IMG/VR virus record: IMGVR_UViG_3300028800_002454 | Coordinates: 1-47,909 of that record | DNA: 47,909 nt | Strand: one strand, 5' to 3' | Origin: a virus | Shown: piece by piece, positions 3,001 to 47,909 of the stretch | Layout of the letters: every line of letters begins with the position of its first letter | How positions within the stretch are numbered: the stretch's first letter is position 1 | The notes under the pieces: generated by a model | The model's input: only the letters and a program-made list of their open reading frames with translations | Databases searched by the model: none | What the model was told of the DNA's origin: nothing | Made by a program: the position numbers and the translations under genes

Positions 3001-3282
3001 GGCGGTGCCGCGGCGGTCAAGATTGTGATCCGTAAGAATGAAGCCAAGGAGCCGACTCCGCCCAAGGACTATGGATCAAAGGCTGCGAGCGCCGATCTCC
3101 AGACTCACGAGGTTCAGGATCTCGCCGACAACATCGACGCCCTCCGTGAGGCAACCGCTGGGCATCCATTGCGCATCCGTGTAACGGTGGAAATCGGTGA
3201 CGGCAGCCAAGTTGATCAATCCGTCTTGGACAAAGTGAACGCTGTCCTTGCACAGATCAAAGAAGGTTGGAAGGCTGAGTAA
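1..3282 (+). CDS. DUF499-family P-loop ATPase of an anti-phage/modification cluster
   Basis: A 1093-residue protein that reads from an ATG at the first base of the window. The N-terminus (about residues 8-110) has the DUF499 pattern: PWHQVVQLRDD, FAADLYDVV, FFALTYPT and a Walker A-like FGGGKTH at 87-93, where the family shows GGGKTH rather than a textbook GxxxxGKT. A Walker B-like strand, LILFDEVLW, lies near 209-217. DUF499 proteins are large ATPases related to the BrxC/PglY type. They usually lie in clusters with a DNA methyltransferase (often DUF1156), a phospholipase-D nuclease and a helicase, where they are thought to couple ATP hydrolysis to DNA recognition. Here the partner gene just downstream is cut by the prophage, so the system may be inactive or altered. 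Family call is firm; role in this cell is inferred. Confidence 0.88.
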   Translation: MAKTTTKPWHQVVQLRDDITNQELSQKQFAADLYDVVMGSNPGVYHDATEFFALTYPTVKLRDLARDVTHRLAGKSEKAVRQLHMTFGGGKTHSLITLVHLVRNPATLPDIPAVQQFKAHCALEGGLPKAHVASVVFDRLDAEKGMEVTAPDGSVATVKMPWSAIAWQLAGPVGMRLLKSDGTERNTPPATGVMEDLLKVARTDGAGVLILFDEVLWFVRVMADTDPAWIGRMREFMHSLTQAVAKVPQCCLVASLLASDPGKMDELGKQISKELYDEFKRVADEGIQPVESQDVPEILRRRLLKLESYTNSSQWPSQVFGALNGVQGIDDYTAKNRAAEEKRYTDAYPFHPALIETLYQKWTQLEGFQQTRGILKILASALRDAVKWDQQPIIGAQIFLVAPTADGLSVAARELANVAQLEQYEGRRQNWTAILEAELVHARKAQDGLLGVQQREIEQAVMATFLHSQPIGQRATTRELKVLIGVGSPDRIELDKGMSRWSDASWYLDDTFTSDREGGLPKVWRLGSKPNLKQMHHDARQNVSVTVVDEVLEKEIRGAGKLTEGARGAGAKVHVLPTRPADIEDDGEFHYAVLGPKAASNGKPSAEAKRFIDETTGPEKPRAQNRNAVVLAVPSKEGIDVAREKVRDLLGWEKVREMLKERSDIDTAATTRLEGNVRAGRGEMVSQIVMAYCIAVTVNDSNDVAAYRINVDNDPLFPKMVADKRLRIESTAVNAEALLPGGPFDLWSAGDRARFVKDLVGAFAATAKLPKMLNRAAILETLLQGCEGGEFVLRVTRADKSSRTFWNYRPDANAIQDTSLEVVLSDAAVLSELDPQLLAPGKLPRLWDEEPVTLADLSAYFSGKHFVEVDKGGYTENLLIPAATPQAITDAVTGAVKTGRVWLVNGTVSVLAEEVPAGFVNDTVQLFSPPLPLTSVDVLPAQLPSAWQGDATNAHFIHAALSSKASKVLPWTRVVSALDEAFRLGLIERTFDSGAWPCDLGGAAAVKIVIRKNEAKEPTPPKDYGSKAASADLQTHEVQDLADNIDALREATAGHPLRIRVTVEIGDGSQVDQSVLDKVNAVLAQIKEGWKAE

Positions 3283-5022: not shown

Positions 5023-6405
5023 CTAAGGGCCGGAGTAGTAGGAAAAGACAGCTAACGCGAGATCGGGCGCTGCCTGCGGCTGGAATGCGTAGAACCCGCA
5101 CGAATCGGGCGTGAGAAATGAGTTGATCGTTTCGCTGAAAAGCGTTTGCCACGATGAACCGTCGCCGGACACTTCGTAATACCAGTTCGCTGCGTCGCTA
5201 CGGATTCGCATCCATTCCGGAACGGCGCCGAGGTTCGTAGAAAACTGGTTGCCGCCCCACGACGAGAAATTGCTGAAGTTGCCGACCCAGTAGCCAAGCT
5301 GGTTCTGATACGCGAGCTCAAAGAGTTTTAGCTTTCCGCTCGCGCTGTCGTACAGGCACGGGCCAACGCACCCGTAGTTGGCATTCAGCGGCGCCGCGCG
5401 CAAGCGCATCGTTACCTGAAATGCGCCCGATGGAATCGGCTGCGTGAGGACAAATGCCTGAGCGCTGCTTGAATGCGGTGCGACAACGCCAATGCCCCAC
5501 GGATATTGCGTGGCGATGGCGCCCGTTGCCCCCTGATTACGCGGTGTGAAGCCGGACAATTGCGGCACCGTGTCCGTCACGCCATGCGATGAATTCGGCG
5601 TGATCGTCGCGCCTGAACCTGCCGCCGTCACATTCGCGTTCGTGAAATTCAGCGATCCCGGCACCACGGCCTTTATGATGCCGCCCTGTTCAACCACGCT
5701 GAGCGTACCGACAAGAGACAATCCTGCGCCGAGCTTGCCGCCTTCGATCAGCTGCAGGTTCGCGCCGCCCGAAAACGACTTGAAGACGAGTGATTGCGTG
5801 GACGAATTCGCCGTGTCGAGAATCGGAGCACCACTGCCTTCATTCGATGCCCCGGTGACCGTGCCACCGGGACAGGTCAGCACCAGACTTCCTGCACCGT
5901 TGTCCGTGATCGAGAAATTCCCACCTGCGGCCAGCGTCTTCACGACGAGACTCGCGGCCGTGGATGACGATGTATCGATCAGGCCGGCGCCAGCCCCTTC
6001 ATTCACGGCAGCGCGCAGCGATCCGCTGATTGCGTTCGGCTGGTAACTGCGCATGTCGGTGTAGCTCGACGCCGTCAATGTGCCGGTCACGACCTGATAC
6101 AGCGGGAACGAGGTAGCCGAAAAGCCTGACGTGTTGGTGCTGACCGCGCCCGTCACTGGGTCCGCAAAGATGTAGTTCGTCGCACTCGCGGCAAGCGTCA
6201 GGGTTCCGTCGGGTACCGATTGCATGACGCCCGCCGGATTCGTATAGTTGCCGCCGTAGTAGCCCCAGACAAGACCGCCCGTCGTTGCCGCGCGCCGGCC
6301 CCACAGCAGCAGTGGGCTGGCGGCATCGAACAGTGCATTGAGCGTCGCCTCCTTCGCGGAGGAAGTCGCGGATAGCGTATCGAGCAGGCTAGAGCTGTTC
6401 GACAT
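5023..6405 (-). CDS. Tail fibre-like protein, paralogue 2
   Basis: A 460-residue protein whose N-terminus (MSNSSSLLDTL, NALFDAASP, WGRRAATTGG, VWGYYGGNY) and C-terminus (FLTPDSCGFY) match the next gene upstream (6409-7797). The middle holds glycine/serine-rich repeats with NEGAGAGLIDT / NEGSGAPILDT units about 50 residues apart, each followed by a SLV-K-F/L strand and an ITDNG-like turn. This looks like a beta-rich trimeric stalk with a C-terminal concanavalin-like tip. It starts three bases after the stop of its paralogue. Probable role: host receptor binding or tail-tip decoration. The function is inferred from position and repeat architecture. Confidence 0.65.
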   Translation of the reverse strand: MSNSSSLLDTLSATSSAKEATLNALFDAASPLLLWGRRAATTGGLVWGYYGGNYTNPAGVMQSVPDGTLTLAASATNYIFADPVTGAVSTNTSGFSATSFPLYQVVTGTLTASSYTDMRSYQPNAISGSLRAAVNEGAGAGLIDTSSSTAASLVVKTLAAGGNFSITDNGAGSLVLTCPGGTVTGASNEGSGAPILDTANSSTQSLVFKSFSGGANLQLIEGGKLGAGLSLVGTLSVVEQGGIIKAVVPGSLNFTNANVTAAGSGATITPNSSHGVTDTVPQLSGFTPRNQGATGAIATQYPWGIGVVAPHSSSAQAFVLTQPIPSGAFQVTMRLRAAPLNANYGCVGPCLYDSASGKLKLFELAYQNQLGYWVGNFSNFSSWGGNQFSTNLGAVPEWMRIRSDAANWYYEVSGDGSSWQTLFSETINSFLTPDSCGFYAFQPQAAPDLALAVFSYYSGP

Positions 6406-6408
6406 GCC

Positions 6409-7797
6409 TTATGCTCCGGCATACCACGAGAACAGCGAGAGGCCGACGGCTTGCCCGTTCGGATCAGCGAAGCATCCCACTTGGTCCGGCGTGAGAAACG
6501 TCGTGCGCGAAAACGAATACATGTTGACCCACGTGACACCATCCGGCGACACGTCGTAATACCGGTTCGTACCGTCGTCACGGATCCGGTGCCAGTCCGG
6601 CCAGAAGGTCATCGCGTACTGCGAGCCCTGAAATCCGCTCCACGAGGTCGGGCTGTTGAAGTTGCCGATGCCGTACTGGAAACCGCTCTGATACAGGAGG
6701 CCAGCGACCTGCAGCAGACCGCTTGAACTGTTGCGCCAGAGGAGCCCGCACTTCATGTAGCTCGAGCTGGCCGGAAACGCGCGCATGCGGGCGACGACCT
6801 GATAGGGCGTCGAAGGCGCGGCCACGGCGAGGCATGTGCAGTTCTCGCCGCCGGCCTTGGGTGTGGACAGGCTGATGCCCCAGGGTTCCTGCAGCGCGGT
6901 GGCGCTGCCCTGGTTGACCCAGGCGAAATTCGACAGGTTCGGTGGTTGATCGGGCGCGCCGAATCCCGAGAAAAGCGCGATCTGCGCTTGCGATCCACCC
7001 GGATTCGTGACTTGCGCCCCGAGGAAATTGAGCTGCGTCGCCGCATTGACGACCGTAGTCCCGTTCTGCTGGATCGCCGGCGCAACGGCAGCGGCCGCGT
7101 TCGCATCGATAGCAATACCGGCGGATCCATTGTCGGTGATCGTGATGCCGCTGCCGGCGACCAGTGTTTTGAATGCGAGGTTGCTCGACGTCGTGGAGGC
7201 AGTGTCGAGCACGCCGACTCCACTGCCTTCGTTGCTGCCGCCCGTGACGGTGCCGCTCGTACCGCTCGTGCTGATCGTGAGCCCGTTCGATCCACCGTCC
7301 GTGACGGTGACACCGGCGCCGCCGATCAGCGACTTGAAAGCGAGCGTCTGCGCCGTCGAATTCGCCGCATCCAGTACGGGGATTCCGCTGCCTTCGCTCG
7401 TTGCGCTGCGGACGGTGCCCGCGATCGCGCTGGGCTGGTAGCTTCGGCAGTCCGTGTAGCTGGAGATGCCGGTCGAACTGGTCACAATCTGGTAGAGCGG
7501 AATCGACCCGGCGGGGAAACCCGTGGTGTTCACCGACACGGCACCGGTCGTGGCGCTCGCATACACGTAGTTGGTCGAGCTCGCGGTGAGCGTGACGGTG
7601 CCGTTCGCGATCGCATTGGCGGTGGTGCCGACCATATACGTGCCGCCATAGTAGCCCCACGTCAGGCCACTCGTCGTGCTCGCGCGCCGGCCCCAGATCA
7701 TCGCGGGACTGGCCGCATCGAACAGGGCATTGGCGATCACTTCCTTGGCCGCCTGATTCGTCGCGATGGTGTCGAGCAGCGTCGTGCTGTTGGACAT
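6409..7797 (-). CDS. Tail fibre-like protein, paralogue 1
   Basis: 462 residues from ATG 7797, with a GAGGTAA ribosome site overlapping the stop of the tail hub gene. The longer open frame upstream lies inside the hub gene and is ignored. The N-terminal block of about 110 residues (MSNSTTLLDTI, NALFDAASPAMIWGRRAS, LTWGYYGGTY, SYTDCRSYQP) is shared with the downstream paralogue. Two central repeat units carry SEGSGIPVLD / NEGSGVGVLD followed by AFKSL / AFKTL and VTDGGS / ITDNGS. The C-terminus contains FLTPDQVGCF. Tandem duplication with divergent middles suggests two receptor-binding or stalk proteins. Confidence 0.65.
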   Translation of the reverse strand: MSNSTTLLDTIATNQAAKEVIANALFDAASPAMIWGRRASTTSGLTWGYYGGTYMVGTTANAIANGTVTLTASSTNYVYASATTGAVSVNTTGFPAGSIPLYQIVTSSTGISSYTDCRSYQPSAIAGTVRSATSEGSGIPVLDAANSTAQTLAFKSLIGGAGVTVTDGGSNGLTISTSGTSGTVTGGSNEGSGVGVLDTASTTSSNLAFKTLVAGSGITITDNGSAGIAIDANAAAAVAPAIQQNGTTVVNAATQLNFLGAQVTNPGGSQAQIALFSGFGAPDQPPNLSNFAWVNQGSATALQEPWGISLSTPKAGGENCTCLAVAAPSTPYQVVARMRAFPASSSYMKCGLLWRNSSSGLLQVAGLLYQSGFQYGIGNFNSPTSWSGFQGSQYAMTFWPDWHRIRDDGTNRYYDVSPDGVTWVNMYSFSRTTFLTPDQVGCFADPNGQAVGLSLFSWYAGA

Positions 7798-36121: not shown

Positions 36122-36943
36122 TCAGTTCCTCGTCGTCGGGGATTGGGTCGCTGCGGCTGCGCATTTGCGGATCAGCGCGTGGAGATCGGGCGGCTCGAGC
36201 AGGTCGAGCTGACCAGAGCGATCCTTGGCCGGATAGCCGTAGGGGTTGAGCGTGTGGGTGACGAACGCGCGGTAGGAGGTGCCGTCGTCGGCCTTGATCT
36301 CGGCGAGCGTGACGACCTCGTCAACGATGCCGGGCAGCTCGGCGGCAGTCTTCGAGCCTTCGATCTGCGGGGTGAACACCTTGCGGTTGAAATCGTCGAC
36401 GCGCTCGTCGAGAATCGCGACGAACACGACGTTCTTGCCGCGCGCATGCTGCAGGTGGGTCAGTGCCGCGAGCATTTCGGTGCCGAGCAAGCCATAGGCA
36501 CCACGCATGTCGGGCTTGCCCGTGCGATCGGACACGGCCTGCGGCTGGGTTCTGGCCCAGATCAGTGCCAGGCGTGCGAGCACCGTGATGCTGTCGACGA
36601 AGTACGTGTCGTAACGGGTCAACTGCGCCGGATCGCCGAAGCGATCGCATACGTGGCGGAAATGCGCATCCGAGAACGGTACCTCCGGCGGCAGGGCCGG
36701 GTTGGAGCCCGCGAGGAACACGACGAGGTCGCGGAATTCAGGCCAGGTAGCCGGGCGCATGCAGTCGCCCTGCCAGTCGCGCACAGAGAGGTCGCCAGCC
36801 TCGAGATCGACGAACAGCGTCGAGGCCTCGGGCAGAGTTCTCAGCAGGCTGGTCTTGCCGATGCCGCTCTTGCCAAGCACGGCGATCTTGACGCCCTGGC
36901 GCTCGGCTAGTCGCTGGTCAGCGGTGATGATGGGAAGCGCCAT
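36122..36943 (-). CDS. RecA-like AAA_24 phage ATPase
   Basis: 273 residues from ATG 36943 with GGAGG before it and TAATG coupling to the antirepressor gene. Walker A is VLGKSGIGKTSLL (about 22-34); Walker B is DTYFVDSITVLARLAL (about 124-139). This AAA_24 family in phages is a RecA/Sak4-type ATPase used with an ssDNA-binding protein for single-strand annealing. The gene order (ATPase, beta-rich protein, zinc protein, PD-(D/E)XK nuclease) supports a phage recombination system. Confidence 0.8.
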   Translation of the reverse strand: MALPIITADQRLAERQGVKIAVLGKSGIGKTSLLRTLPEASTLFVDLEAGDLSVRDWQGDCMRPATWPEFRDLVVFLAGSNPALPPEVPFSDAHFRHVCDRFGDPAQLTRYDTYFVDSITVLARLALIWARTQPQAVSDRTGKPDMRGAYGLLGTEMLAALTHLQHARGKNVVFVAILDERVDDFNRKVFTPQIEGSKTAAELPGIVDEVVTLAEIKADDGTSYRAFVTHTLNPYGYPAKDRSGQLDLLEPPDLHALIRKCAAAATQSPTTRN

Positions 36944-37692
36944 TACGCGGCCTCCTTCAGCAGATCCGCAACCGCCGGATTCCAGAGAATCTGGTAGCCC
37001 GAGTGACCGTTGCGCGAGTAGGGCATAGCCTCGGCCCAGGCCTCGCCTGCCTCGGTCAGCTCCCACTCGTCGCGGTCATTGCGCGCCTGCAGACCGTGAC
37101 GCGCAAGGCGCAGGTTGGCCGCTTTCGCCGAGATGCTCAGAAGCTGGCCAACCTGCGTGGCGTTGAGCGAGCAGATGGGCGCATCCGCAGCGGGCAACGC
37201 GCGGCGCAGCGTTTCGACGGCGATGCCGGTGTTCTCGTGGATGCAGGTCAGCGTTGCAGCCATCGCAATGCCGGCCTTGACGCCAGGTACCTTCGCCACG
37301 GCCTCGCCGATCAGCAGGATCGACGACACGCGGTCCTGGGTCGGTGCGGGCAGGCTGGCGACGGCGTTGTAGCTGCCGGTATTGCGGATCGCAGGCAGCA
37401 CCTCGCTCGTGACCCAGCGCTTGAAGCGCTTCGCGGCGTCCTTGGTGCAGCCGAGGATCAGGGCATACAGTCCCGATTCGTTTACGTGGTTCTGGCGCTG
37501 ACGGCCGCCAGGCGTAAGGGTGTCCAATTTCTGGACATCCTCGTCATCGACATGCGATTCGACGGCCTGGCGCGAATTACCGAACTCGAGCACAGTGCAC
37601 ACGTCATTGGCGTTGAACCAAGGCTGGCCAGCGTCATCGACATGGACGCGCACTGCGTGGGCTTCGAATTCGAACGGAAGGATATTCGTCAT
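36943..37692 (-). CDS. BRO-N domain antirepressor
   Basis: 249 residues. The N-terminal BRO-N domain is clear: PFEFEAHAVRVHVDDAGQPW, FNANDVCTVLEFGNSRQAVE, VNESGLYALILGCTKDAAKR and FKRWVTSEVLPAIRNTGSYN. The C-terminal half has a winged-helix-like end (LNATQVGQLLSISAKAANLR, DEWELTEAGEAWAEA). BRO-N proteins bind DNA and often relieve phage repression. Its expected target, a CI-type repressor, is not found within the element. Confidence 0.85.
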   Translation of the reverse strand: MTNILPFEFEAHAVRVHVDDAGQPWFNANDVCTVLEFGNSRQAVESHVDDEDVQKLDTLTPGGRQRQNHVNESGLYALILGCTKDAAKRFKRWVTSEVLPAIRNTGSYNAVASLPAPTQDRVSSILLIGEAVAKVPGVKAGIAMAATLTCIHENTGIAVETLRRALPAADAPICSLNATQVGQLLSISAKAANLRLARHGLQARNDRDEWELTEAGEAWAEAMPYSRNGHSGYQILWNPAVADLLKEAA

Positions 37693-38191: not shown

Positions 38192-38449
38192 TCAGCGAAC
38201 CGAGCGCTCGGAGGTCGAGTCGTGCAGTGCGCCACGCTCGAACTCGAGGATCGCATCGAGCGGATAGCTCACGCGCTTGGAAAGCTTCAGGTACTTCGGT
38301 CCGCGCCCTTCGCTGCGCCAGCGTTGCAGCGTCTTGGGGCTGATGCCCCAGCGCTGCGCGAGCTCGTTCTCGCTGAGCACGCGGCGATCACCGGGGGAAA
38401 AGATCGCCTCGTGGTGCGACCGGGTAACACCGTCTGTCATCGTCGTCAT
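38192..38449 (-). CDS. Helix-turn-helix regulator (AlpA/excisionase-like), first early gene
   Basis: 85 residues from ATG 38449 with AGGAG nine bases upstream. The core VLSENELAQRWGISPKTLQR, WRSEGRGPKYLKLSKRVSYP is the MerR/AlpA-type HTH plus wing. As the first gene of the early operon, directly below a repeat array (38501-38563), it may autoregulate this promoter or act as excision factor for the recombinase. Confidence 0.75.
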   Translation of the reverse strand: MTTMTDGVTRSHHEAIFSPGDRRVLSENELAQRWGISPKTLQRWRSEGRGPKYLKLSKRVSYPLDAILEFERGALHDSTSERSVR

Positions 38450-38500
38450 CAAAGTCTCCTGTGACGCTGTTGAGGAACAGGTGTCATTTCAGGATTTCGA

Positions 38501-38563
38501 TGGCGAACCTTTAAGGGAGCCATTGGCGAACCACGCAGAAACTTCTGGTTCGCCAATTCGCCA
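38501..38563. promoter_or_regulatory. Operator-like repeat array upstream of the early operon
   Basis: The nine-base unit TGGCGAACC occurs directly at 38501-38509 and 38524-38532 and inverted (GGTTCGCCA) at 38547-38555, with a further partial TTCGCCA copy at 38557-38563. The pair TTGGCGAACC...GGTTCGCCAA is a perfect ten-base palindrome with a 14-base spacer. The array fills the gap between the integration-module terminator and the early HTH gene, the place for a lysogeny operator. Confidence 0.6.
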
Positions 38564-38567
38564 GGTC

Positions 38568-38594
38568 AAAAAAATGGCGAGCACTGCGCTCGCC
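38568..38594 (-). terminator. Rho-independent terminator of the integration module
   Basis: On the minus strand a perfect seven-base stem (GGCGAGC / GCTCGCC, plus-strand arms 38576-38582 and 38588-38594) with a five-base loop is followed one base later by seven T residues. It lies 25 bases after the stop of the last integration-module gene and insulates the early operon. Confidence 0.8.
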
Positions 38595-38618: not shown

Positions 38619-39110
38619 TCAGACTGGACGTTCGGGGAATCCGAGCAGCCGGCGCTGCTCGGCCCAGTCTCGGGGTAGCAATGCTGCGCGGCCGCGCAGC
38701 GCGTGAAGATCCAGTTGCCGCGGTTGCCGTCCGTCGAAAATCGCCTCAATGATGTCGGGCGCAAGCAGCGTCAGGCGCAGCACCTCGGCCACCCAGCCGG
38801 GCTCGAGCTTCAACGTCCGCGCCAGCTCCGTGGCCGTCGCATAATGGCCCTGCTCGATCTGCCGCTTCCAGTAGAAAGCCTTGCCGAGCATGCGAATCAT
38901 CGGCAGGTCGATTCCGCCGCCCGTTATCGCGGAGTGCTCACCCGGTGGTGGGATCAGCAGCTTGCGGTTGTGCCGTCGTTTCACGGACAGCGCTACGGTC
39001 GTGACGCGCTGCGTGCCGTCGTAATAGCTGCGAGAACCGCCGGCCACCTCGACGCGGATCGTGCGCGGATCCGGCGGCAGACACTTCGCGCCCGAGGTGT
39101 CGCGCTTCAT
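38619..39110 (-). CDS. HTH (KorB/ParB-like) protein coupled to the recombinase
   Basis: 163 residues whose ATG overlaps the recombinase stop (ATGA). The middle contains ATATELARTLKLEPGWVAEV, LRLTLLAPDIIEAIFDGRQP, the ParB/KorB-type HTH in which a helix pair is followed by L-A-P-x-I-x-E-A-I-x-x-G-x-Q-P. Proteins of this shape commonly follow serine recombinases in DUF2924-type mobile modules. It probably binds DNA at the att site or the module promoter. The exact role is unknown. Confidence 0.68.
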   Translation of the reverse strand: MKRDTSGAKCLPPDPRTIRVEVAGGSRSYYDGTQRVTTVALSVKRRHNRKLLIPPPGEHSAITGGGIDLPMIRMLGKAFYWKRQIEQGHYATATELARTLKLEPGWVAEVLRLTLLAPDIIEAIFDGRQPRQLDLHALRGRAALLPRDWAEQRRLLGFPERPV

Positions 39111-40525
39111 CGCGCCACCTCCATCGCGTCCGGGCGAGATTCCTCGACGAGCGGGTGCGCGCTGATGTCCTGACCGAGGCCGAGCCAGCCATCCTCACGC
39201 CAGTGGATGTCGAGTCCCTGCGCATGCAGCTGGACTCGTTCGATCAGGAGTCGCGCGAGCCGCTGCTGCTCCACCGGAAACAGCTGCTCCCACACCGCGC
39301 CGATGCGCTGCATGGCCACGACCACCTGTGGTTCATCGAGCGCCGCGCCGGCGGGATGCCGTTGGCATGACCGCCATGCGCCGATCAGCACCTCGGGCGC
39401 GCTCAAGGCCGCATGAATCTGGACCAGCACGGCCTGCTCGATCTCGGCTGCGGGCAGATGGCCCGTGCCGGGGATCTCCGGAGCGAGCGTCGCGCCGGCA
39501 TGTCGGCGCTTATGCAGGTAGGGCACGTAGTACCGGTAGATCCGGCCGCTTTTCTTGCGCACGAACGTGTGTAGCATGCGCTGGCCATCCGGTGCAAAGA
39601 GCAGCCCGGCGAGCAGTGCCGAGTGCTTTGAGCGCCGCTCGCGTGGGCCCTGCTGGCGTCGTTCAATGAATGCGTGCGCAGCGTTCCACAGTTCCTGCGG
39701 CACTATGGGCTCATGCTGCCCGGCGAAATACTGGCCCTTGTGGTGGATCTCGCCGAGATACACGCGGCTGCGCAGTACATGGAAAATGAACTGCTGGTCG
39801 ATCGGACGACCAGTACGGTGACGCCCGTCTTGCGTGACCCATGCCTTGGTGGTGCGACCTTCGATGGCGAACTCGCGCACGAGACGCGCCGCCGATCCGT
39901 GTTCGCCATACCGCCGGAAGATATCCCGCACGAGCATGGCCTCCGGCTCATTGACGACCAGTCGCCGATCGACGACGTCGTAGCCGAGCGGCGGCATGCC
40001 ACCCATCCACATGCCACGCGCCTTGCTCGCGGCAAACTTGTCGCGGATGCGCTCGCCCGTCACCTCGCGCTCGAACTGCGCGAACGACAGCAGAATGTTC
40101 AGCGTCAGTCGCCCCATCGAGGTCGTCGTGTTGAACTGCTGCGTGACGGCGACAAAAGAGACACCGCACCGGTCGAACACGTCGACGAGTCGAGCAAAAT
40201 CCGGGAGACTGCGCGTGAGCCGGTCGATCTTGTAGACCACCACGATGTCGATCGTGCCAGCCTCGATATCGGCAAGCAGTCGCTGCAATGATGGCCGATC
40301 GAGATTGCCGCCGGAATATCCGCCGTCGTCGTACCCGTCGTTCACCGCGATCCAGCCCTCGTGACGCTGGCTTGCGATGTAGGCGAGACCCGCATCGCGC
40401 TGTGCTTCGAGGCTGTTGTATTCTTGATCGAGGCCTTCGTCGCTGGACTTCCGCGTGTACACGGCACAGCGTTTTTTCGGGGTGACCGTAGCAGGCATGG
40501 GCGCGATGTTGCGTGTCCCCTTCAT
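39107..40525 (-). CDS. Serine recombinase (prophage integrase)
   Basis: 472 residues from ATG 40525, which overlaps the DUF2924 stop. The resolvase domain has CAVYTRKSSDEG with the nucleophile serine at about 27, VVYKIDRLTRSLPDFARLVD, and LTLNILLSFAQFEREVTGER leading into the long E helix. The recombinase domain follows (GGMPPLGYDVVDRRLVVNEP). Where large serine integrases usually have a zinc ribbon, this protein reads LLAGLLFAPDGQRMLHTFV without the cysteines. Mid-length for the group. It would integrate and excise the prophage without host factors. Confidence 0.9.
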   Translation of the reverse strand: MKGTRNIAPMPATVTPKKRCAVYTRKSSDEGLDQEYNSLEAQRDAGLAYIASQRHEGWIAVNDGYDDGGYSGGNLDRPSLQRLLADIEAGTIDIVVVYKIDRLTRSLPDFARLVDVFDRCGVSFVAVTQQFNTTTSMGRLTLNILLSFAQFEREVTGERIRDKFAASKARGMWMGGMPPLGYDVVDRRLVVNEPEAMLVRDIFRRYGEHGSAARLVREFAIEGRTTKAWVTQDGRHRTGRPIDQQFIFHVLRSRVYLGEIHHKGQYFAGQHEPIVPQELWNAAHAFIERRQQGPRERRSKHSALLAGLLFAPDGQRMLHTFVRKKSGRIYRYYVPYLHKRRHAGATLAPEIPGTGHLPAAEIEQAVLVQIHAALSAPEVLIGAWRSCQRHPAGAALDEPQVVVAMQRIGAVWEQLFPVEQQRLARLLIERVQLHAQGLDIHWREDGWLGLGQDISAHPLVEESRPDAMEVAR

Positions 40526-40995
40526 GCGACCTCCGCTTTCCGGCGACCGGATTTCAGGCCAAAGAAAGCAGGTCCCGACCAGTTACTGCCGGTGATCTCG
40601 CGCGCGATCGCTGTGAGGCTACGGAAGCGGATGCCCTGGTACTCGAAGTCGTTGATGCCGCGCACGAGCACGCGATGATCGATGTCGTTGTAGTTGCGGG
40701 TGATAACCGTGCCGGGAAGTAGGCGTTCACCGGCGCGATGCACTTGTCGCGGCATGATGCCAGTTTCGCCTATCTCTTCGAGCTTGCGGCGAAGCGATGC
40801 ACGCAGTCCGCCGAACGCTCGTTCCTGCATCCGGTAAGCAAGCCGGGTTTCAATCCAGATGCGATTGTGATGGTTCGGGCGCTCGTCGAAATACTCGTCC
40901 CACAGTGCCCACAGGCTGCCGATCGGCAGATGGGGAAGCTGGGCAATGCGTGCCGTGATGGTCGGGGCGCCAGGCTGACCTGCGTGTGTCGTCAT
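40522..40995 (-). CDS. DUF2924 protein of the recombinase module
   Basis: 157 residues. The DUF2924 pattern is clear: ARIAQLPHLPIGSLWALWDE, RIWIETRLAYRMQERAFGGL, ERLLPGTVITRNYNDIDHRV, DFEYQGIRFRSLTAIAREIT and GSNWSGPAFFGLK. It overlaps both neighbours by ATGA. The family regularly lies directly upstream of serine recombinases, so an accessory DNA-binding role in recombination is likely but not established. Confidence 0.88.
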   Translation of the reverse strand: MTTHAGQPGAPTITARIAQLPHLPIGSLWALWDEYFDERPNHHNRIWIETRLAYRMQERAFGGLRASLRRKLEEIGETGIMPRQVHRAGERLLPGTVITRNYNDIDHRVLVRGINDFEYQGIRFRSLTAIAREITGSNWSGPAFFGLKSGRRKAEVA

Positions 40996-41390: not shown

Positions 41391-43226
41391 TCAGACGTCG
41401 ATGGGCGATGTCTTCCAAACGTCCTGCACCAAGGTTATCAGCAGCGCGTGACGGGCTTCGATGGTCTTTGCATCCCAAACAGGAAATGCCTTCAGCTTTT
41501 CGTTGATTCGGGAAATGGAGGTGTTCTGACCGACGTTGGTCAGCTCAGCCAAACTGCGCGTGAGATAGTTCCCGCTCTTGCAGTACTCGGCCTGTTTCTT
41601 CGCGTAAAAATCATTGCCGGCGACAATATTGATTGGCTTTTCTAACAAAGTCAGATTACCGAGCCGGTTTTTGTAGCCATCGTAATCTGCACCGGGATTT
41701 TCCTCAGCCCACTTGGCACGCAGTTCGGGCGTTGGCGTATTGGGCAGAATATGCTCGATCTCCAGACTGGTAAACGGGCCCAAGCTACTGTGCGTTTTCA
41801 GCCCGCTGAAAGCCATATCGACATACTGCGTCAGACGTGCCAGCAAATAGCGCGTGCGGTATTGCTGCATCGAATACAGGGTGAAACGTCGCAATGCATC
41901 GACCAGTTCCTGAGATTTTCCGGCCATGCTCGTATCGAAGCGGTCAGCAATGAATGCGTTGAGCTGCGCCTTCTGCTTAAGCGGATCCGCGATGGCGGCA
42001 ATGGTGCGAATTTCATCGGCCCATTGAGAGAAGTTGCGCTCTAGATCCTTGGTCGGCGTCTTCGTGAAAATGTAGTAGAAGAGGAAGCTCTCCAACTGCG
42101 CCACGAAGTGCTCAAACAGCGGCTTGGGGAAATTGGCGGCCGCCAGCAGCAAAACGTAATGCAAGCTGAACGCGCCACCGGCCAAACGCTTGAGACTATC
42201 CATCGCCAGACTGGGTTTGCCGTCATTACCCAGTCCGTTGGCAAAGGCCAGGTAGTGCTCGACGTTACGGATCACCTTGCGAACGAACTCGAAGGGCTTG
42301 TTCGCGTAATCGCACATGGCCGCGTTGTCCTTGGCCACGAACCAGTCGTAGATTTCGTCCTCGCGCACCACCGAGTCACCACGCTCGTTCTTAATCACGT
42401 AGTTGGCCATCAGGAAATAGCGCAGGAAGCGCAGCGGCTTTTCCTTTTCTTTCTCCAGCGGCTTGGTGATTTTCTTCCACTCGTCCTTGAGCTGGGTGAA
42501 CTGCGATTGATTGACCTGCGTGAACAATAGGTTCTTCAGCAGATCCATCGGGTTCAGGCCTACGCCGCGCTCGTTGATGGTCTCGAAGATCTTCAGCGCG
42601 CTACTCACGTCGGTGGATATCTGGATGAACACCACGTTGTTGGCCAGATAGCCCCAATACTTCTTCAGCTTGGCGACGTCGTCGTAGTTATCTTTCAGAT
42701 AGTGGTACAGCGTGCTGTAGGCATTGACCAGATTTTCGAGGGAGCCGAAGCTGGCGATCCCTGAAGCCTGAATGCCCGTGCGCACAGCCTGTGGATCGGC
42801 ATCCAACTCCACCAGCTTGGCCATCACTTCGGCCGCATTCTCGTAACGAGGCTCCAGCTTCAGGTTCGTGCGGACCTCGCCGTCGCTGTCCACATAGCTG
42901 GTCGATATCAGTCCGGAAATCATTTGCCGTTGTGGCTCGCCCTGGAACAGATGCTTCAGCGCGCACAGCAGCAGGAAAAATGTGGTCAGGCGCTGCTGAC
43001 CATCGATGACCTCGTAGTGATTCTTTTGATGGGTCGGCGACACCAGTACGGTGCCAATGAAATATTCCCGCGTCGTGCCCCCATCGATCTGCTCACCGAT
43101 ATCCTCCAGTAGCTGATGCACTTCCTTGTCCGTCCAGACGTACTCGCGTTGGTAGTCCGGGACGATGTAGAAGCATTCCCTGAAGGCCTCCTCGATGCTG
43201 TATTTATGGTTTTCGATACGCGCCAT
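41391..43226 (-). CDS. DUF262/DUF1524 protein (GmrSD-like)
   Basis: 611 residues. The N-terminal DUF262 domain shows YIVPDYQREYVWTDKEVHQL (about 20-39) and YEVIDGQQRLTTFFLLLCAL (about 71-90), where DGQQR is the ParB-like NTP-binding motif. The C-terminal DUF1524 HNH-type nuclease is at about 486-520: SLEIEHILPNT, then NRLGNLTLLEKP. This fusion is the architecture of type IV, GmrSD-like enzymes that cleave modified (for example glucosylated) DNA using NTPs; related proteins occur in several defence systems. It follows the ImmA gene by 62 bases on the same strand. Confidence 0.85.
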   Translation of the reverse strand: MARIENHKYSIEEAFRECFYIVPDYQREYVWTDKEVHQLLEDIGEQIDGGTTREYFIGTVLVSPTHQKNHYEVIDGQQRLTTFFLLLCALKHLFQGEPQRQMISGLISTSYVDSDGEVRTNLKLEPRYENAAEVMAKLVELDADPQAVRTGIQASGIASFGSLENLVNAYSTLYHYLKDNYDDVAKLKKYWGYLANNVVFIQISTDVSSALKIFETINERGVGLNPMDLLKNLLFTQVNQSQFTQLKDEWKKITKPLEKEKEKPLRFLRYFLMANYVIKNERGDSVVREDEIYDWFVAKDNAAMCDYANKPFEFVRKVIRNVEHYLAFANGLGNDGKPSLAMDSLKRLAGGAFSLHYVLLLAAANFPKPLFEHFVAQLESFLFYYIFTKTPTKDLERNFSQWADEIRTIAAIADPLKQKAQLNAFIADRFDTSMAGKSQELVDALRRFTLYSMQQYRTRYLLARLTQYVDMAFSGLKTHSSLGPFTSLEIEHILPNTPTPELRAKWAEENPGADYDGYKNRLGNLTLLEKPINIVAGNDFYAKKQAEYCKSGNYLTRSLAELTNVGQNTSISRINEKLKAFPVWDAKTIEARHALLITLVQDVWKTSPIDV

Positions 43227-43288: not shown

Positions 43289-44158
43289 TCATCTTGTGCC
43301 TGCTGCATTCCAGCGACGCGGCTCCGCATCCTCCAGCAGCAACAGCGTGAGCACGCGATCACGCGCGGCATACGTATGCTTGAATTCGTGGAGTTTCATG
43401 TACGGCGCTTCGTCTGTACACCATAGCGACGCCGGAAGCTCGACGCCGTCACGCTCCTGCAAAACACTGGTGTCTGCGGCGATGGTTCCTGGCAACGGCT
43501 CGACGGGATTGGTTAGCCGCTGAATTCGTGCTTTGCTCAGAACAGCAGATCGACTGCGCCATTCGTATTTTAAGAATCCGTTGTCCCAGTGCAGCAGGAT
43601 GGCTCGAACGTCAGTGTATTTTATGAAACGAATGCATAGTGCCTCAAAAGACACCTGAAAACGTGACGCGAGCTGACTCAGCAGATGCAGACTGATGGTC
43701 TGCCCGGCCATTGCGTCTCGCAGCATGTCACCCGGCAGCAGCAGATTGCTCGCAAAATCATCCGCCTCGCGCTCAATCACCGCCAGAGTGTCCTGTCCCG
43801 AGTACACGCTTGCCTTATCGCACTGAAAAGACATCTGGCGATCCCGGTGCAGAATAAAATGCCCAAGCTCGTGTGCAATCGTGAATCTTTGGCGCTCGGG
43901 CGTGGCGTTACCGTTATAGAAAATTCCCCACTCGGCAGCATCGTCCGGATTACGCACCAGCATACCTTCACAGCTGGCGATCGGCGAAGGCATCGGAGCC
44001 TTGATCTCGCGGACACCTTTTCCGTAAGGTGTACCCGGCAATCCTTGGCAAACCAACTCAAGGTCAAGCACATCGGATAGCCCTGACGGAAATGCGGTGC
44101 GCAACAGCCGCAGGATAGCTGTCGCCGCCGTGAATCCGTTGAGCGCCACCGCGTTCAT
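43289..44158 (-). CDS. ImmA/IrrE-family metallopeptidase
   Basis: 289 residues. The zinc site is RFTIAHELGHFILHRD (HELGH at 96-100) with the third ligand in VIEREADDFASNLLLPGDML (E131). The C-terminal 140 residues are beta-rich and unassigned (RAILLHWDNGFLKYEWRSRS). Its start overlaps the XRE gene stop (ATGA). XRE-ImmA pairs act as repressor and anti-repressor protease in ICEBs1-type elements, and as toxin-antitoxin/defence pairs such as RosmerTA. Here it may control the downstream DUF262 nuclease. Confidence 0.85.
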   Translation of the reverse strand: MNAVALNGFTAATAILRLLRTAFPSGLSDVLDLELVCQGLPGTPYGKGVREIKAPMPSPIASCEGMLVRNPDDAAEWGIFYNGNATPERQRFTIAHELGHFILHRDRQMSFQCDKASVYSGQDTLAVIEREADDFASNLLLPGDMLRDAMAGQTISLHLLSQLASRFQVSFEALCIRFIKYTDVRAILLHWDNGFLKYEWRSRSAVLSKARIQRLTNPVEPLPGTIAADTSVLQERDGVELPASLWCTDEAPYMKLHEFKHTYAARDRVLTLLLLEDAEPRRWNAAGTR

Positions 44159-44502
44159 TGCGCGTTCCCGCCATCCTTACGGGAGCCGAACATCAAAGTG
44201 AGTGCATCCCGGTAGCGCTGTTTGTCGCCATCAGTCATGCCCGCGTACTCCCGGAAAAACGCCACATCTTCTGGGGTTGCCTGCGGAACGTCCTTGGGCG
44301 CTTCGCCCATCAAATCCTCGACCGTGACGCCCAGCAGCTTGGAAAGGGCATAGACGCGTTCTGCCGTCGGTCGTTGCCCCTCCCTCATTTCCAGCTCCCA
44401 GACATAAGCCTTGGTACAGCCGATCTCGTCGGCGACCTGCTGGAGAGTCAATTTTTTTGCTTCCCGCAAACGGCGCAACCGTATGCCGAACGCCGAAGCC
44501 AT
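44155..44502 (-). CDS. XRE-family regulator
   Basis: 115 residues with an N-terminal HTH_3 domain: FGIRLRRLREAKKLTLQQVA, DEIGCTKAYVWELEMREGQR, PTAERVYALSKLLGVTVEDL. An AGGAG ribosome site precedes the ATG. A likely promoter on the minus strand has TATACT at 44550-44545 and a weak TTGCAT at 44572-44567, spacing 16. It probably represses its own operon and perhaps the divergent plus-strand pair. The C-terminal tail (ATPEDVAFFREYAGMTDGDK) may be the site recognised or cleaved by the ImmA peptidase. Confidence 0.85.
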   Translation of the reverse strand: MASAFGIRLRRLREAKKLTLQQVADEIGCTKAYVWELEMREGQRPTAERVYALSKLLGVTVEDLMGEAPKDVPQATPEDVAFFREYAGMTDGDKQRYRDALTLMFGSRKDGGNAQ

Positions 44503-44589
44503 GGCGCACTCCTGTTTTGATGGATCAAGTTCGCTAAACCCGAGAGTATAGCAACGAGATACATCAATGCAACGGATGTTTCAAATTGA

Positions 44590-44618
44590 TTGACAAGAGG
44601 AAAAGAGAGGGACAGAAT
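44590..44618 (+). promoter_or_regulatory. Sigma70-type promoter for the plus-strand pair
   Basis: TTGACA (44590-44595), a 17-base spacer, then CAGAAT (44613-44618), about 117 bases before the ATG at 44736. The -35 box is perfect; the -10 box matches four of six. The -10 box overlaps a six-base inverted repeat (GAGGGA 44607-44612, TCCCTC 44618-44623). Confidence 0.55.
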
Positions 44619-44628
44619 CCCTCGCAGT

Positions 44629-44654
44629 ATCTCAAAACTTTACTTATTTGAGAT
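44629..44654. promoter_or_regulatory. Operator-like palindrome in the divergent intergenic region
   Basis: ATCTCAAA (44629-44636) and TTTGAGAT (44647-44654) form a perfect eight-base palindrome with a ten-base spacer. The half-site GAGAT(A) also appears near 44556, so three related half-sites flank both promoters. This fits binding by the XRE protein encoded next door and joint control of both transcripts. Confidence 0.55.
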
Positions 44655-44735
44655 TCTGTTTGGCGAACTCAGTCGCCGGCTAGCGACCAGAATATCGGTC
44701 CCCAGCCTCCGACATCTCCAGGAAGAACCGAAGCA

Positions 44736-45968
44736 ATGAAAAAGACGCACGTCGATATTTTGCTCGAACTGCCGGTGGATGGAGCGCTGCGCGGTTTTCT
44801 GACGTCCCACGGACTGCCCCTACCGGCTAGCTTTGACTGGAACCAGGCGGATGCCACGTCCGACGCACTGGTAGATGCCGTTCATGAGTGGTCCGATGCC
44901 GTCGCCCGTGACCAGATGATCGGCAACCTAATGGCGAGCGTCCGGCTCGCCGACGCAACGGGCAGGCAGGCGCTGTTCGAGGCTGCGATGTGGGACAGCG
45001 CGGCACTCACAGGCCTGACGCTGTGCGGCAGCGACCTGCACCGGTCGTTCTGGTTGTATGTGCATCATCCTGACATCTTCGAACGTGCGCTCGACTTCAG
45101 CTTCTGGGAACACCACGGGCCACAAACGCAGCAGTACGATCTGGGCATCACCAGCGAACCGGATTCGTCCACGGTCGCTCTGGACGCTTTGCGCGGCGCC
45201 ATCTCCGACTTCTACCTGCGGGAGCTGCATTGCGGTGACAGCGGCGTGGCTTACCTCGTGCAACGCAGTCCAGGCGTGTTCCTCCTGACCGTCCACGTCA
45301 AGGATCTGGCCACGCTGCGCCTGGAGTTTGAGGGCTCAAATCTGAAGCGCCACGTTGGGAATCCCAATATCCAAATGGCACTGGAATACTCTCGTGCCAC
45401 GGGCGTCGTCCGCACGCTTGTACGTGGCGGCGCAAAATACCAGCAGATGCTGGTCGATGCGTTCGCAGAGCATGTTTTGGGCCTCACGGTGAGCGCTCAA
45501 CGGATCAAGTCGCCGACGCTCGATCTGTCGTCGCTGCGTACCGGTTTCGATGTGCCGGAGGTCTTCGAGGATGGCTTTGCCATCGTCCAACTCAAAGCCC
45601 TCACACTGCTCAGCCCGGACAGTGAGCTCAAGCTCGAGTGCGTCGCCATGGCCTCGAAGGAGCAGCGATCTGTTCATGAGTTGCTGCAGGAAAAGCTGCC
45701 GGCCCCGCTTGCTGATCGCTGGACCGTGACGGCGGCACAAATCAACCTCTACTATCCGCCCGAGCCTGGCAGACGCGCCAAGGTAGTTTCCGTCGAAGTG
45801 ACCAGCAAGGGAAGGCTGAACCTGCATCAGTTCGACGCCCGCTTGCAAGCTCAGCTGGAAGGCTATCTGGTCAAGGTCGGCATCCTCCAGAAAGGACAGG
45901 TCCTCAACGCTCAAGAAATGCCACCCGGGGCTGACGCGGTCGGATCGTCGCCGGAATCGGTGAATTAA
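44736..45968 (+). CDS. Unrecognised 410-residue protein, first gene of a pair
   Basis: 410 residues from ATG 44736 with AGGAAG upstream (MKKTHVDILLELPVDGALRG). No signal peptide, membrane segment or nucleotide-binding motif is visible. Residues of about 60-130 are helical with aromatic clusters (DLHRSFWLYVHHPDIFERAL, DFSFWEHHGPQTQQYDLGI). Residues 180-260 contain FLLTVHVKDLATLRLEFEGS and YSRATGVVRTLVRGGAKYQQ. The last third is beta-rich (INLYYPPEPGRRAKVVSVEV). I do not recognise a family. It lies three bases before the zinc-ribbon gene and next to XRE-ImmA-DUF262 genes, so a defence role is plausible but unproven. Confidence 0.75.
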   Translation: MKKTHVDILLELPVDGALRGFLTSHGLPLPASFDWNQADATSDALVDAVHEWSDAVARDQMIGNLMASVRLADATGRQALFEAAMWDSAALTGLTLCGSDLHRSFWLYVHHPDIFERALDFSFWEHHGPQTQQYDLGITSEPDSSTVALDALRGAISDFYLRELHCGDSGVAYLVQRSPGVFLLTVHVKDLATLRLEFEGSNLKRHVGNPNIQMALEYSRATGVVRTLVRGGAKYQQMLVDAFAEHVLGLTVSAQRIKSPTLDLSSLRTGFDVPEVFEDGFAIVQLKALTLLSPDSELKLECVAMASKEQRSVHELLQEKLPAPLADRWTVTAAQINLYYPPEPGRRAKVVSVEVTSKGRLNLHQFDARLQAQLEGYLVKVGILQKGQVLNAQEMPPGADAVGSSPESVN

Positions 45969-45971
45969 TCG

Positions 45972-46934
45972 ATGTCCTCGCCCGAATCCTGGTTACTGAT
46001 CTGCCGGCTTTTTGCCATTGGCGCGCCGATACCGTGCACCGCGCTGTCGTCGCGCGAGATCAATGTCCTGCCTGCCGTCGGCCACGCAGTCAAGCAGGCG
46101 ATGCTGGACCGGGATTTCGTGCTTTGTCCGCACTGCCAGCAGCATCGGGCACAGGTATGGGGCGACGGGCACGGCGGTCGGACGTGCCGCTGCCCGGACT
46201 GTGGGCCGGTCACAGTTGATCGGGACGATGGTGCGTCGCTGGCGCTGGACGAAGACTGGCTACGCCGGAAATTGCGCACCGCCCTCGATATCAACAGCCG
46301 TGATGGCATCGACGATCTGGGGAATGGCGTCTGGCGTCTGGGCAATGCCCGCAGCATTCCAGTACTGCTTGCCCGCGACCCGATGCGCATCTGGCATGAG
46401 CCTGCTCTGCTCGATCGAGTCCGCGTTGACGGGCAAGTCATCCGGCTGATCACGCCTCGCTCGCAGCTACATGCTCCGCCCGGTGCTGGAGTGGAATGGC
46501 TCGCGATCGAGGAGCGTTTCGCACTCTACGGTGACACGCTTTCGTTCATCGACCCGGGCTCGCAAGCCACTAAGGCGGTCACAGCCGATCCAGCCATACC
46601 GGTGAACGGTCCATTCTCGGCTGACTTCCGCTGGGTCACGCTACCAAATGGCAACGGCTCGCCAATCCACTGCACCGAAGCTCAGGCCAAGGTATTCAAT
46701 GCCCTGTGGTCGTTCAATGGCCAGGAGGTCACCGCCGATCGGATCATGCAGCGGGCGGGGCTCGCCAGTGACAAACCAATCGACGTGTTCAAGGTAAAAA
46801 CCCGCGATAAGGGCAAACCGGAATACGAACAGCCGTTGGCAGCCTATCGAGCACTCGTCATCACTCAACGGCGCCAAGGGCTGTATTCACTCGCTTGTGC
46901 CCCTACGGCCATGCACGCATCTTTCACGCAATAG
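45972..46934 (+). CDS. Unrecognised zinc-ribbon protein, second gene of a pair
   Basis: 320 residues from ATG 45972, three bases after the upstream stop. A zinc ribbon is visible: CPHC at 52-55 and CPDC at 74-77. The middle holds EDWLRRKLRTALDINSRDGI and NGVWRLGNARSIPVLLARDP. The C-terminal 90 residues (CTEAQAKVFNALWSFNGQEV, TADRIMQRAGLASDKPIDVF) read as a winged helix. A zinc ribbon joined to a winged helix suggests a nucleic-acid-binding partner of the 410-residue protein. The pair would be co-translated. No established family is recognised. Confidence 0.75.
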   Translation: MSSPESWLLICRLFAIGAPIPCTALSSREINVLPAVGHAVKQAMLDRDFVLCPHCQQHRAQVWGDGHGGRTCRCPDCGPVTVDRDDGASLALDEDWLRRKLRTALDINSRDGIDDLGNGVWRLGNARSIPVLLARDPMRIWHEPALLDRVRVDGQVIRLITPRSQLHAPPGAGVEWLAIEERFALYGDTLSFIDPGSQATKAVTADPAIPVNGPFSADFRWVTLPNGNGSPIHCTEAQAKVFNALWSFNGQEVTADRIMQRAGLASDKPIDVFKVKTRDKGKPEYEQPLAAYRALVITQRRQGLYSLACAPTAMHASFTQ

Positions 46935-46967: not shown

Positions 46968-47909
46968 ATGGCCTCAAAAATGCCCGCTGCCCGCGATGCA
47001 AATGGAAATCGCATCACCATTGAAATGGCGGAAAATGGATCATTTGAAAAACCACTGAAGTGCGAATTTTGCGATGCATCCGTTTCATTTGTGAATGGGC
47101 ATCCAAGGGAAGTGGGGGAGGATATTGTTTTTGTCGAACCCTTTTTTAGGCTGGCGCCCAAAAGCACACATCACGAAGGCTGCAATTACAACTCTGTCGG
47201 CCAACTGACTGTTATTGCTCGGGAATCAGATGGCGACGTTTTTATGGCCATTTCGAATAATCAATTTCAACTTCGATTGCTTGCCGTAAAAAAGGCACTT
47301 GACCAGCTTATTGAACTAGCCAAAACAAAAAAATCCCTCACCGACGATAAGAAATTAATCAGCCAGCAGAAGGAGTACATAGCTAGCGAAGAGAAATTGG
47401 GGGCATACATCAATAGTGCAAAACGGGTGCTTAAGGTTCGCTCCGTATGCGAGAATCATGCCGAGATAGAAAATCTTCTTACTCTCGTATTTGACGGTGT
47501 AAATGTTCCATGGTCTGATTTTTATTTTGAGGACACCGACTATTTTCGGTGCTATCGACAACTTAAAAGCTCAACCACCCAGATACCTATCGCCGTCCAC
47601 GGCACAATCAAATCAATAAAAACCGTACCCGGGAAAAAAGAAAATTTTTCGGTTGTCAATCTTGTACGCCCCATGCGAAACATGGACGAAGCAGATGCTC
47701 GGGAGGTGGCATGCACGTCGATTTGGTCTCCCGATGTTAATTTTTTCTCGGATTACCGAGAGGGGCAGACTATCATTGCATTTGGTATGTGGCAGTGGAA
47801 ACCCGAAAGCAGAATTGCCAATTCCAAAGCGAACTCACCAATCAAAACATTTGTAAATTATGAGATGCGGCTGTGGCCCGTCGCAAAATCTCAGATCTGC
47901 GCGGCTTAA
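46968..47909 (+). CDS. Zinc-finger-like protein of unknown function, AT-rich
   Basis: 313 residues from ATG 46968 with AAGGA upstream, ending with the stop at the last base of the window. The N-terminus has KCEFCDASVSFV and, about 30 residues on, FFRLAPKSTHHEGCNYNSVG: C32, C35, H68/H69 and C72 form a probable zinc site, similar in layout to CoiA-type N-terminal domains. The middle has a lysine-rich helix (LAKTKKSLTDDKKLISQQK). The rest is beta-rich. The gene is much less GC-rich than its neighbours, suggesting recent transfer. Function unknown; possibly the start of another accessory module to the right. Confidence 0.75.
   Translation: MASKMPAARDANGNRITIEMAENGSFEKPLKCEFCDASVSFVNGHPREVGEDIVFVEPFFRLAPKSTHHEGCNYNSVGQLTVIARESDGDVFMAISNNQFQLRLLAVKKALDQLIELAKTKKSLTDDKKLISQQKEYIASEEKLGAYINSAKRVLKVRSVCENHAEIENLLTLVFDGVNVPWSDFYFEDTDYFRCYRQLKSSTTQIPIAVHGTIKSIKTVPGKKENFSVVNLVRPMRNMDEADAREVACTSIWSPDVNFFSDYREGQTIIAFGMWQWKPESRIANSKANSPIKTFVNYEMRLWPVAKSQICAA

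What the first reader, a model, noticed from the sequence alone, without database searches (positions are those of the whole stretch)
44503..46934. Unrecognised two-gene unit next to XRE-ImmA-DUF262
A 410-residue protein and a 320-residue zinc-ribbon/winged-helix protein are three bases apart, have their own promoter and share an operator-rich intergenic region with a divergent XRE regulator. Neither matches a family I know. A protein without enzymatic motif plus a nucleic-acid-binding partner, inside a defence island, is a good candidate for an undescribed defence or regulatory pair.
Basis: inference. Interest (0 to 1): 0.75.

Follow-up and report, generated by a model that had tools for sequence, protein, structure and literature searches.

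The report
Prophage induction-switch gene pair
The two unknown genes are not a stand-alone immune system but a conserved pair in a widespread family of dormant bacterial viruses, most likely the relay that turns the virus's early genes on when its repressor is destroyed, with one protein built like the DNA-clamping proteins RdgC and lambda RexA.

Summary
A410 (44736-45968) and B320 (45972-46934) are intact, three bases apart, and divergent from an XRE-ImmA (CapH/CapP-type) pair across an operator-bearing intergenic region conserved between genera. The defence reading does not hold up. The pair is a constant part of a prophage family in which g163-serine recombinase-DUF2924-[variable, often defence, cargo]-ImmA-XRE<>A410-B320 ends at tRNA/tmRNA CCA ends. 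The genes are always adjacent, and fused into one ~750-aa protein in AcaML1-like phages. B320 is a zinc ribbon plus predicted OmpR-type winged helix. A410 has no recognised family, but its model resembles RdgC and CENP-N/Chl4, folds that lambda RexA was also matched to. XRE operators occur only at xre-A410. The early operon has its own conserved array (GGCGAAC-N16-GTTCGCC plus a direct repeat) where a -35 box would be. The array persists without hth86, g165 or XRE/ImmA, is missing in the one close relative lacking A410-B320, and its half-site changes together with B320's winged helix in one clade. Best model: XRE/ImmA gates A410-B320, and B320 (with A410) activates the early genes. No experiment was done; the sign of regulation and A410's role are inferred. 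New variant of a known kind of switch, built from undescribed proteins.

The parts
44736..45968 (+). A410: first gene of the pair; helical N-terminus plus beta-rich domain resembling RdgC / CENP-N (RexA-like fold by inference)
   Evidence: ORF; family; AF2 pLDDT 85.6; Foldseek PDB and BFVD; phrog_37634
45972..46934 (+). B320: zinc ribbon (C52,C55,C74,C77), middle beta domain, C-terminal OmpR/PhoB-type winged helix; proposed activator of the early operon
   Evidence: (invariant Cys; AF2 pLDDT 87.4), (covariation with early array)
44155..44502 (-). XRE repressor (CapH-type)
   Evidence: PADLOC capH 2.8e-23; HTH_31
43289..44158 (-). ImmA/CapP-type M78 metallopeptidase (HELGH)
   Evidence: capP 2.3e-52; Peptidase_M78 1.5e-23
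44545..44562 (.). Operator-like O1 (GTATAGC...GAGATAC), overlaps the leftward xre -10 (TATACT on - strand)
44590..44618 (+). Promoter of A410-B320: TTGACA-17-CAGAAT
44625..44658 (.). Operator-like O2: CAGTATCTCAAA-N10-TTTGAGATTCTG, just downstream of the A410 -10
38501..38555 (-). Early-promoter array read leftward: (T)TGGCGAACC-N-GGTTCGCCA-N-GGTTCGCCA; palindrome 38525-38554; stands in the -35 position of hth86's promoter
38576..38594 (-). Intrinsic terminator separating the SerRec/g163 operon from the early promoter
38192..38452 (-). hth86: HTH_17 (excisionase/AlpA-like) protein, first gene of the early operon
36122..37066 (-). AAA_24 ATPase, early operon marker
   Evidence: PF13479 3e-43
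38619..39110 (-). g163, conserved gene next to the recombinase
39107..40525 (-). Serine recombinase (putative integrase)
   Evidence: (Resolvase 2.6e-36, Recombinase 5e-10)
40522..40995 (-). DUF2924 protein, beside the recombinase
   Evidence: PF11149 3.4e-42
41391..43226 (-). Cargo slot occupant in this prophage: DUF262/GmrSD (HEC-06-like) protein
   Evidence: slot varies
46968..47909 (+). C313: extra gene between B320 and the prophage end, present in this window only among the loci examined
   Evidence: (phrog_7195 3e-12)

Best explanation
A410-B320 is the output arm of a temperate phage's lysogeny switch. In the lysogen the XRE repressor holds the A410-B320 promoter shut. DNA damage activates the ImmA protease, which removes XRE, so A410 and B320 are made. 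B320 binds, through its C-terminal OmpR/PhoB-type winged helix, the repeat array that replaces the -35 box of the early promoter (hth86-g165-AAA24...) and recruits RNA polymerase as a class II activator, which starts excision and lytic genes. A410, an RdgC/RexA/Chl4-like protein, works with B320 as DNA-clamping partner (the two are one fused protein in AcaML1-like phages). Shown here: gene order, co-occurrence, fusion, operator and array positions, array specificity, presence/absence pattern, covariation in one clade. Inferred: XRE cleavage by ImmA, binding of the array by B320, positive sign of control, role of A410.
For: (1) The pair is inseparable: adjacent (gap about -32 to +9 bp) in nearly all intact copies, and fused in AcaML1 Gp6 relatives (A410 profile prob 98, E 7e-14; B320 profile collinear behind it, E 7e-5). 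(2) It lies in the SerRec-DUF2924-(XRE-ImmA) phage cassette: 31 of 32 SerRec-seeded loci with a repressor and room have A410. (3) Paired XRE half-sites GTATCTC/GAGATAC lie only in the xre-A410 intergenic in the form-1 loci checked (isolated single half-sites apart); the early promoter has none and is insulated by a terminator. A410-B320 is thus the only visible route from XRE to the early genes. (4) The early promoter has a different, fixed-geometry array; 106 of 107 distinct copies in 3.3 Mb lie at the early promoter (the other is also near hth86), against 0.005 expected per window. (5) The array stays where hth86 is missing (L109, L112-L115), where XRE/ImmA are missing (L051, L065, L087) and where g165 is missing (L191); it is absent in L160, which has SerRec, DUF2924, XRE, hth86, AAA24 and g223 but lacks A410-B320, and there XRE faces hth86 directly. 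(6) L110 B320 is 94% identical to L113 B320 up to residue 250 but only 61% in the winged helix, where it resembles the main type, and its half-site is GTTCGCC instead of GTTCCTG. (7) B320's only structural matches are OmpR-family domains, which often bind tandem repeats (own knowledge). (8) Precedents: SetCD of SXT binds near -35 as a class II activator (PMC4344509); RexA, an RdgC-fold protein of lambda, biases the switch to lysis (PMC11077077).
Against: No experiment. L160 is a single 5.3-kb contig and also lacks ImmA and g165. In form 2 the array lies within ~250 bp of B320's 3' end, so the L110 change could be one recombination tract and not selection for matching. The fold match of A410 is weak (TM at most 0.50, E ~1e-4) and there is no sequence homology to RdgC. 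The -10 hexamer of the early promoter is poor. In strongly diverged members (L175-L185) the array was not recognised. A second phage regulator encoded elsewhere could bind the array.
Confidence: 0.6

Rival explanations
1. Rex-like exclusion or other prophage-encoded defence: A410 acts like lambda RexA (RdgC-fold DNA sensor) and B320 is its partner; after derepression by ImmA they kill or block competing phages, as CapH/CapP-controlled CBASS does.
For: A410 model matches RdgC and CENP-N/Chl4, the folds that RexA was matched to (PMC11077077); neighbour regulators are CapH/CapP-type; the adjacent slot often carries defence genes.
Against: No PADLOC match and no PHROG of known function; B320 is a soluble zinc-ribbon/winged-helix protein, not a RexB-type membrane protein; the pair is a constant core part while the cargo varies; the early-array pattern is unexplained by it.
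Confidence: 0.15
2. Recombination accessory: the pair assists the serine recombinase (excision directionality or DNA-end handling) or modulates RecA like RdgC, and is linked to SerRec-DUF2924 for that reason.
For: In L034, L035, L051, L087, L091, L190 and L191 A410 is divergent directly from DUF2924/SerRec without XRE-ImmA; RdgC-like fold; in form 1 the pair abuts the attachment site.
Against: In form 2 the pair is far from att and next to the early genes, while g163/SerRec are next to the tRNA; hth86 (HTH_17) is the more usual directionality-factor type (own knowledge); does not explain array covariation with B320.
Confidence: 0.15
3. The pair binds the early array as a repressor (a second lock on lysogeny) and XRE-ImmA modulates it.
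For: Same binding evidence as the best explanation.
Against: The array ends ~12 bp upstream of the -10 and takes the place of a -35 box, typical of activation; XRE operators imply the pair is off in the lysogen, where a maintenance repressor should be on.
Confidence: 0.07

Closest known systems
SXT/R391 ICE switch: SetR repressor with SetC-SetD activator complex (PMC4344509)
   Same: A DNA-damage-gated phage-like repressor controls a two-gene activator; the activator site is near -35 of the element's other operons
   Different: SetCD is a FlhDC-type complex (own knowledge); A410/B320 match no such family. Control of int by A410-B320 was not seen; the site found is at the early operon
ICEBs1 / TnSmu1 ImmR-ImmA and CBASS CapH-CapP (PMC10233336)
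   Same: XRE repressor plus M78 protease in one operon, divergent from the controlled genes
   Different: The controlled genes here are A410-B320, with no conjugation genes and no CBASS effector
Lambda RexA and E. coli RdgC (PMC11077077)
   Same: A410 model matches RdgC and CENP-N/Chl4, as RexA does; gene sits beside the repressor
   Different: No detectable sequence homology to RdgC; partner is a zinc-ribbon/winged-helix protein instead of RexB; extra N-terminal helical region
Acidithiobacillus phage AcaML1 (JX507079; integrates at ssrA, PMC3826726)
   Same: Same recombinase, DUF2924 and early operon; Gp6 is a fused distant homologue of A410-B320
   Different: Fused, very diverged, on the SerRec strand; no GGCGAAC array found

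Membership tests
RdgC (PF04381) | Sequence profile match | tested here: not met
   No Pfam hit; profile-profile prob 0.1, E 0.45 against eight RdgC
RdgC / RexA / Chl4 fold group | Similar fold | tested here: inconclusive
   Foldseek prob 1.0, E 5e-5 to 8e-4 to CENP-N and RdgC, but TM-scores at most 0.50
RexAB exclusion system | RexB-type membrane protein partner | tested here: not met
   B320 is a globular zinc-ribbon/winged-helix protein
CapH/CapP regulator pair | XRE repressor and M78 protease with HExxH, adjacent | tested here: met
   PADLOC capH 2.8e-23, capP 2.3e-52; HELGH in the sequence
CapH/CapP regulator pair | Cleavage of the repressor after DNA damage | not testable with these tools
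   Needs experiment
CBASS | CD-NTase and effector under the regulators | tested here: not met
   Controlled genes are A410-B320, no PADLOC match
Known anti-phage defence system | Match to a described defence protein | tested here: not met
   PADLOC: no match for A410 or B320
Known anti-phage defence system | Protection against phage | not testable with these tools
   Needs plating assay
SetCD-type activator pair | FlhD/FlhC homology | tested here: not met
   No Pfam or NCBIfam match
SetCD-type activator pair | Binding site at -35 of the activated operon, pair encoded under the repressor | tested here: inconclusive
   Position and repressor sites seen; binding inferred only

The most novel reading that the evidence does not exclude
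A new class of phage lytic-switch activator: a heteromer (a single fused protein in some phages) of an RdgC/RexA-fold clamp and a zinc-ribbon/OmpR-type winged-helix protein, gated by an ImmR/ImmA-type repressor-protease pair, that inserts a relay between repressor and early operon in many Beta-/Gammaproteobacterial prophages.
Probability: 0.5. Interest if true: 0.7.

Novelty: new variant of a known kind. Interest (0 to 1): 0.6.

Why it matters
It gives a testable function to two protein families with no annotation that occur in many Beta- and Gammaproteobacterial prophages, and shows how such prophages could separate the repressor from the early genes by an activator relay. If A410 is a working RdgC/RexA relative, it supports the recent idea that RdgC-fold proteins beside phage repressors tune the lysis-lysogeny decision. 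It also warns that 'unknown pair beside XRE-ImmA-DUF262' need not be a defence system: the defence gene is a passenger in the next slot.

Tried and rejected
Defence-family searches for both proteins: nothing. PDB sequence search: nothing useful. RdgC sequence homology: rejected. A second GGCGAAC palindrome near the DUF2924 start was first taken as another binding site, then dropped: it is an overlapping reading frame plus ribosome-binding site. hth86 as the array binder: rejected because phages without hth86 keep the array. The IMG/VR pattern scan returned about 40 unrelated contigs as well, compatible with chance hits in so large a collection, so the pattern alone is not proof. XRE operators in form-2 phages could not be identified. 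Plasmid and isolated-phage collections hold no close A410.

Full report
What is there. The window is an IMG/VR virus record of 47,909 bp, cut at gene ends. It carries a tailed prophage with a large terminase and a tape-measure protein. The genes to their left, all on the minus strand, are XRE, ImmA, DUF262 (GmrSD), DUF2924 (PF11149), a serine recombinase, a 163-aa gene (g163), then an early operon: hth86 (HTH_17), g165, an AAA_24 ATPase and g223.

Homologues. One scan of GTDB genomes gave 39 loci and scans of IMG/VR many more. HMM annotation of the loci shows one conserved cassette: g163-SerRec-DUF2924-[cargo]-ImmA-XRE <> A410-B320. A410 and B320 are adjacent in nearly every intact copy. The cargo changes: GmrSD, OST-HTH (LOTUS) proteins, a DUF4011/MTES_1575 helicase-nuclease (PADLOC PDC-S37/Hhe), a type II RM pair, a PIN toxin-antitoxin-like pair in AcaML1 (sequence read), transporters and a two-component system (read from sequence). 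Of 32 recombinase-seeded loci with a repressor and at least 1.5 kb beyond it, 31 have A410; the exception is L160. Several contigs appear under more than one locus number, so locus counts are not independent.

Element ends. In form-1 genomes the element ends a few hundred bases after B320, exactly at the CCA end of a tRNA gene that faces it: tRNA-Phe or tRNA-Ala(CGC) in most, tRNA-Glu in L018, tmRNA in L029. AcaML1 is reported at ssrA with 10-bp repeats (PMC3826726). In form-2 phages (L074, L078, L086 and others) the cassette is inverted relative to the early genes: the tRNA lies beyond g163, and A410-B320 are followed by the early genes. The prophage is therefore the unit, and the pair is not a free-standing defence-island gene.

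The pair as one unit. In AcaML1-like phages a ~750-aa protein matches the A410 profile over its first half (prob 98, E 7e-14) and the B320 profile directly behind it (prob 63, E 7e-5). The second match alone is weak, but the collinear order supports a fusion. A fusion is independent support that A410 and B320 act together.

Structures. B320 (AF2 pLDDT 87) has a zinc ribbon with four invariant cysteines, a middle beta domain and a winged helix; Foldseek finds only OmpR-family DNA-binding domains, weakly (E 0.03). A410 (pLDDT 86) matches CENP-N/Chl4 and E. coli RdgC in the PDB (E 5e-5 to 8e-4, TM at most 0.50) and RdgC-annotated phage proteins in BFVD. Chl4/Iml3 and RdgC are known to be alike (PMC4080450), and lambda RexA was matched to RdgC, Iml3 and Chl4 (PMC11077077). 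There is no sequence homology to RdgC. I treat this as a fold lead, not as membership.

Repressor side. The xre-A410 intergenic region is 83% conserved between genera. It holds a TTGACA-17-CAGAAT promoter for A410 and repeats of GTATCTC/GAGATAC: one over the xre -10, one just downstream of the A410 -10. In the form-1 loci checked, the paired half-site occurs only there (isolated single half-sites occur elsewhere, e.g. inside the recombinase gene). XRE thus appears to control itself and A410-B320 only. ImmA has the M78 domain and HELGH motif; ImmA-type cleavage of the partner repressor after DNA damage is established or proposed for ICEBs1, TnSmu1 and CapH/CapP (PMC10233336) and is assumed here.

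Early promoter. A terminator precedes it, so transcription from g163/SerRec should not simply read in. Upstream of hth86 lies an array: an inverted half-site, then direct copies of GTTCGCC, ending about 12 bp before an xxAAT -10-like sequence, with no -35 hexamer. The geometry is fixed in 69 distinct arrays. Of 107 distinct exact palindromes in 3.3 Mb of family loci, 106 are at this promoter and the other is also within 270 bp of hth86; chance expectation is 0.005 per window.

Which protein reads the array. It persists without hth86 (L109, L112-L115), without XRE/ImmA (L051, L065, L087) and without g165 (L191). It is absent from L160, which keeps SerRec, DUF2924, XRE, hth86, AAA_24 and g223 but lacks A410-B320; there XRE is directly divergent from hth86. 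Of the cassette genes only A410-B320 fits. Then, in one clade, L110 and L111 have GTTCGCC/GTTCGCT half-sites while L109 and L112-L115 have GTTCCTG. Group-specific residues: 10 in B320, most of them in the winged helix; none in A410, g165 or XRE; 4 in AAA_24. L110 B320 is 94% identical to L113 B320 up to residue 250 and 61% after it, while to the window B320 it is 42% and 59%. Caution: in form 2 the array is close behind B320, so one recombination tract could have moved both.

Mechanism. Together these give an activator relay: XRE shuts A410-B320; ImmA removes XRE; B320, helped by A410, binds the array in the -35 position and turns on the early operon. In form 1 this acts in trans over ~6 kb. 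It resembles SetR/SetCD of SXT, whose activator binds near -35 (PMC4344509). Binding, sign and A410's part are inference.

Judgement. Confidence that the pair is a core phage regulatory or DNA-transaction module and not a stand-alone defence system: about 0.8. Confidence in the specific relay: about 0.6.

Noticed in passing
window 1-3282: The record starts with a DUF499 gene matching PADLOC HmaC (7e-74), so a second defence locus flanks the prophage on the left or the prophage cut includes host DNA.
   Followed up: partly
L005, L007, L015, L017, L018, L029 and others, just after B320: A serine-recombinase prophage family ends exactly at the CCA end of tRNA-Phe, tRNA-Ala(CGC), tRNA-Glu and tmRNA genes; tRNA 3' ends are usually tyrosine-recombinase targets. 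The phage end supplies a terminator-like hairpin for the tRNA.
   Followed up: partly
window 41391-43226 and the same slot in other loci: The slot between DUF2924 and ImmA is a variable cargo site, often defence genes, in dozens of prophages: a possible place to look for new defence systems (e.g. L155 MBL-fold-like + 271 aa + 290 aa; L110 460 aa; L028 324 aa).
   Followed up: partly
window 46968-47909: C313, a 313-aa protein with a Cys-His rich start (phrog_7195, 3e-12), sits between B320 and the expected prophage end only in this window.
   Followed up: no
L074, L078-L086 versus window, L015, L054: The whole cassette g163...B320 occurs in two opposite orientations relative to the early operon (form 1 and form 2), always between att and the early genes.
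   Followed up: partly
L110 9715-9745 and 9850-9879: Two palindromic arrays in tandem after B320, one replacing the usual terminator.
   Followed up: no
L196 (AcaML1, JX507079) 6139-6600 and 5562-6134: Gp8 is annotated as excisionase, but with Gp7 (PIN domain-like by eye) it reads more like a toxin-antitoxin pair in the cargo slot.
   Followed up: no
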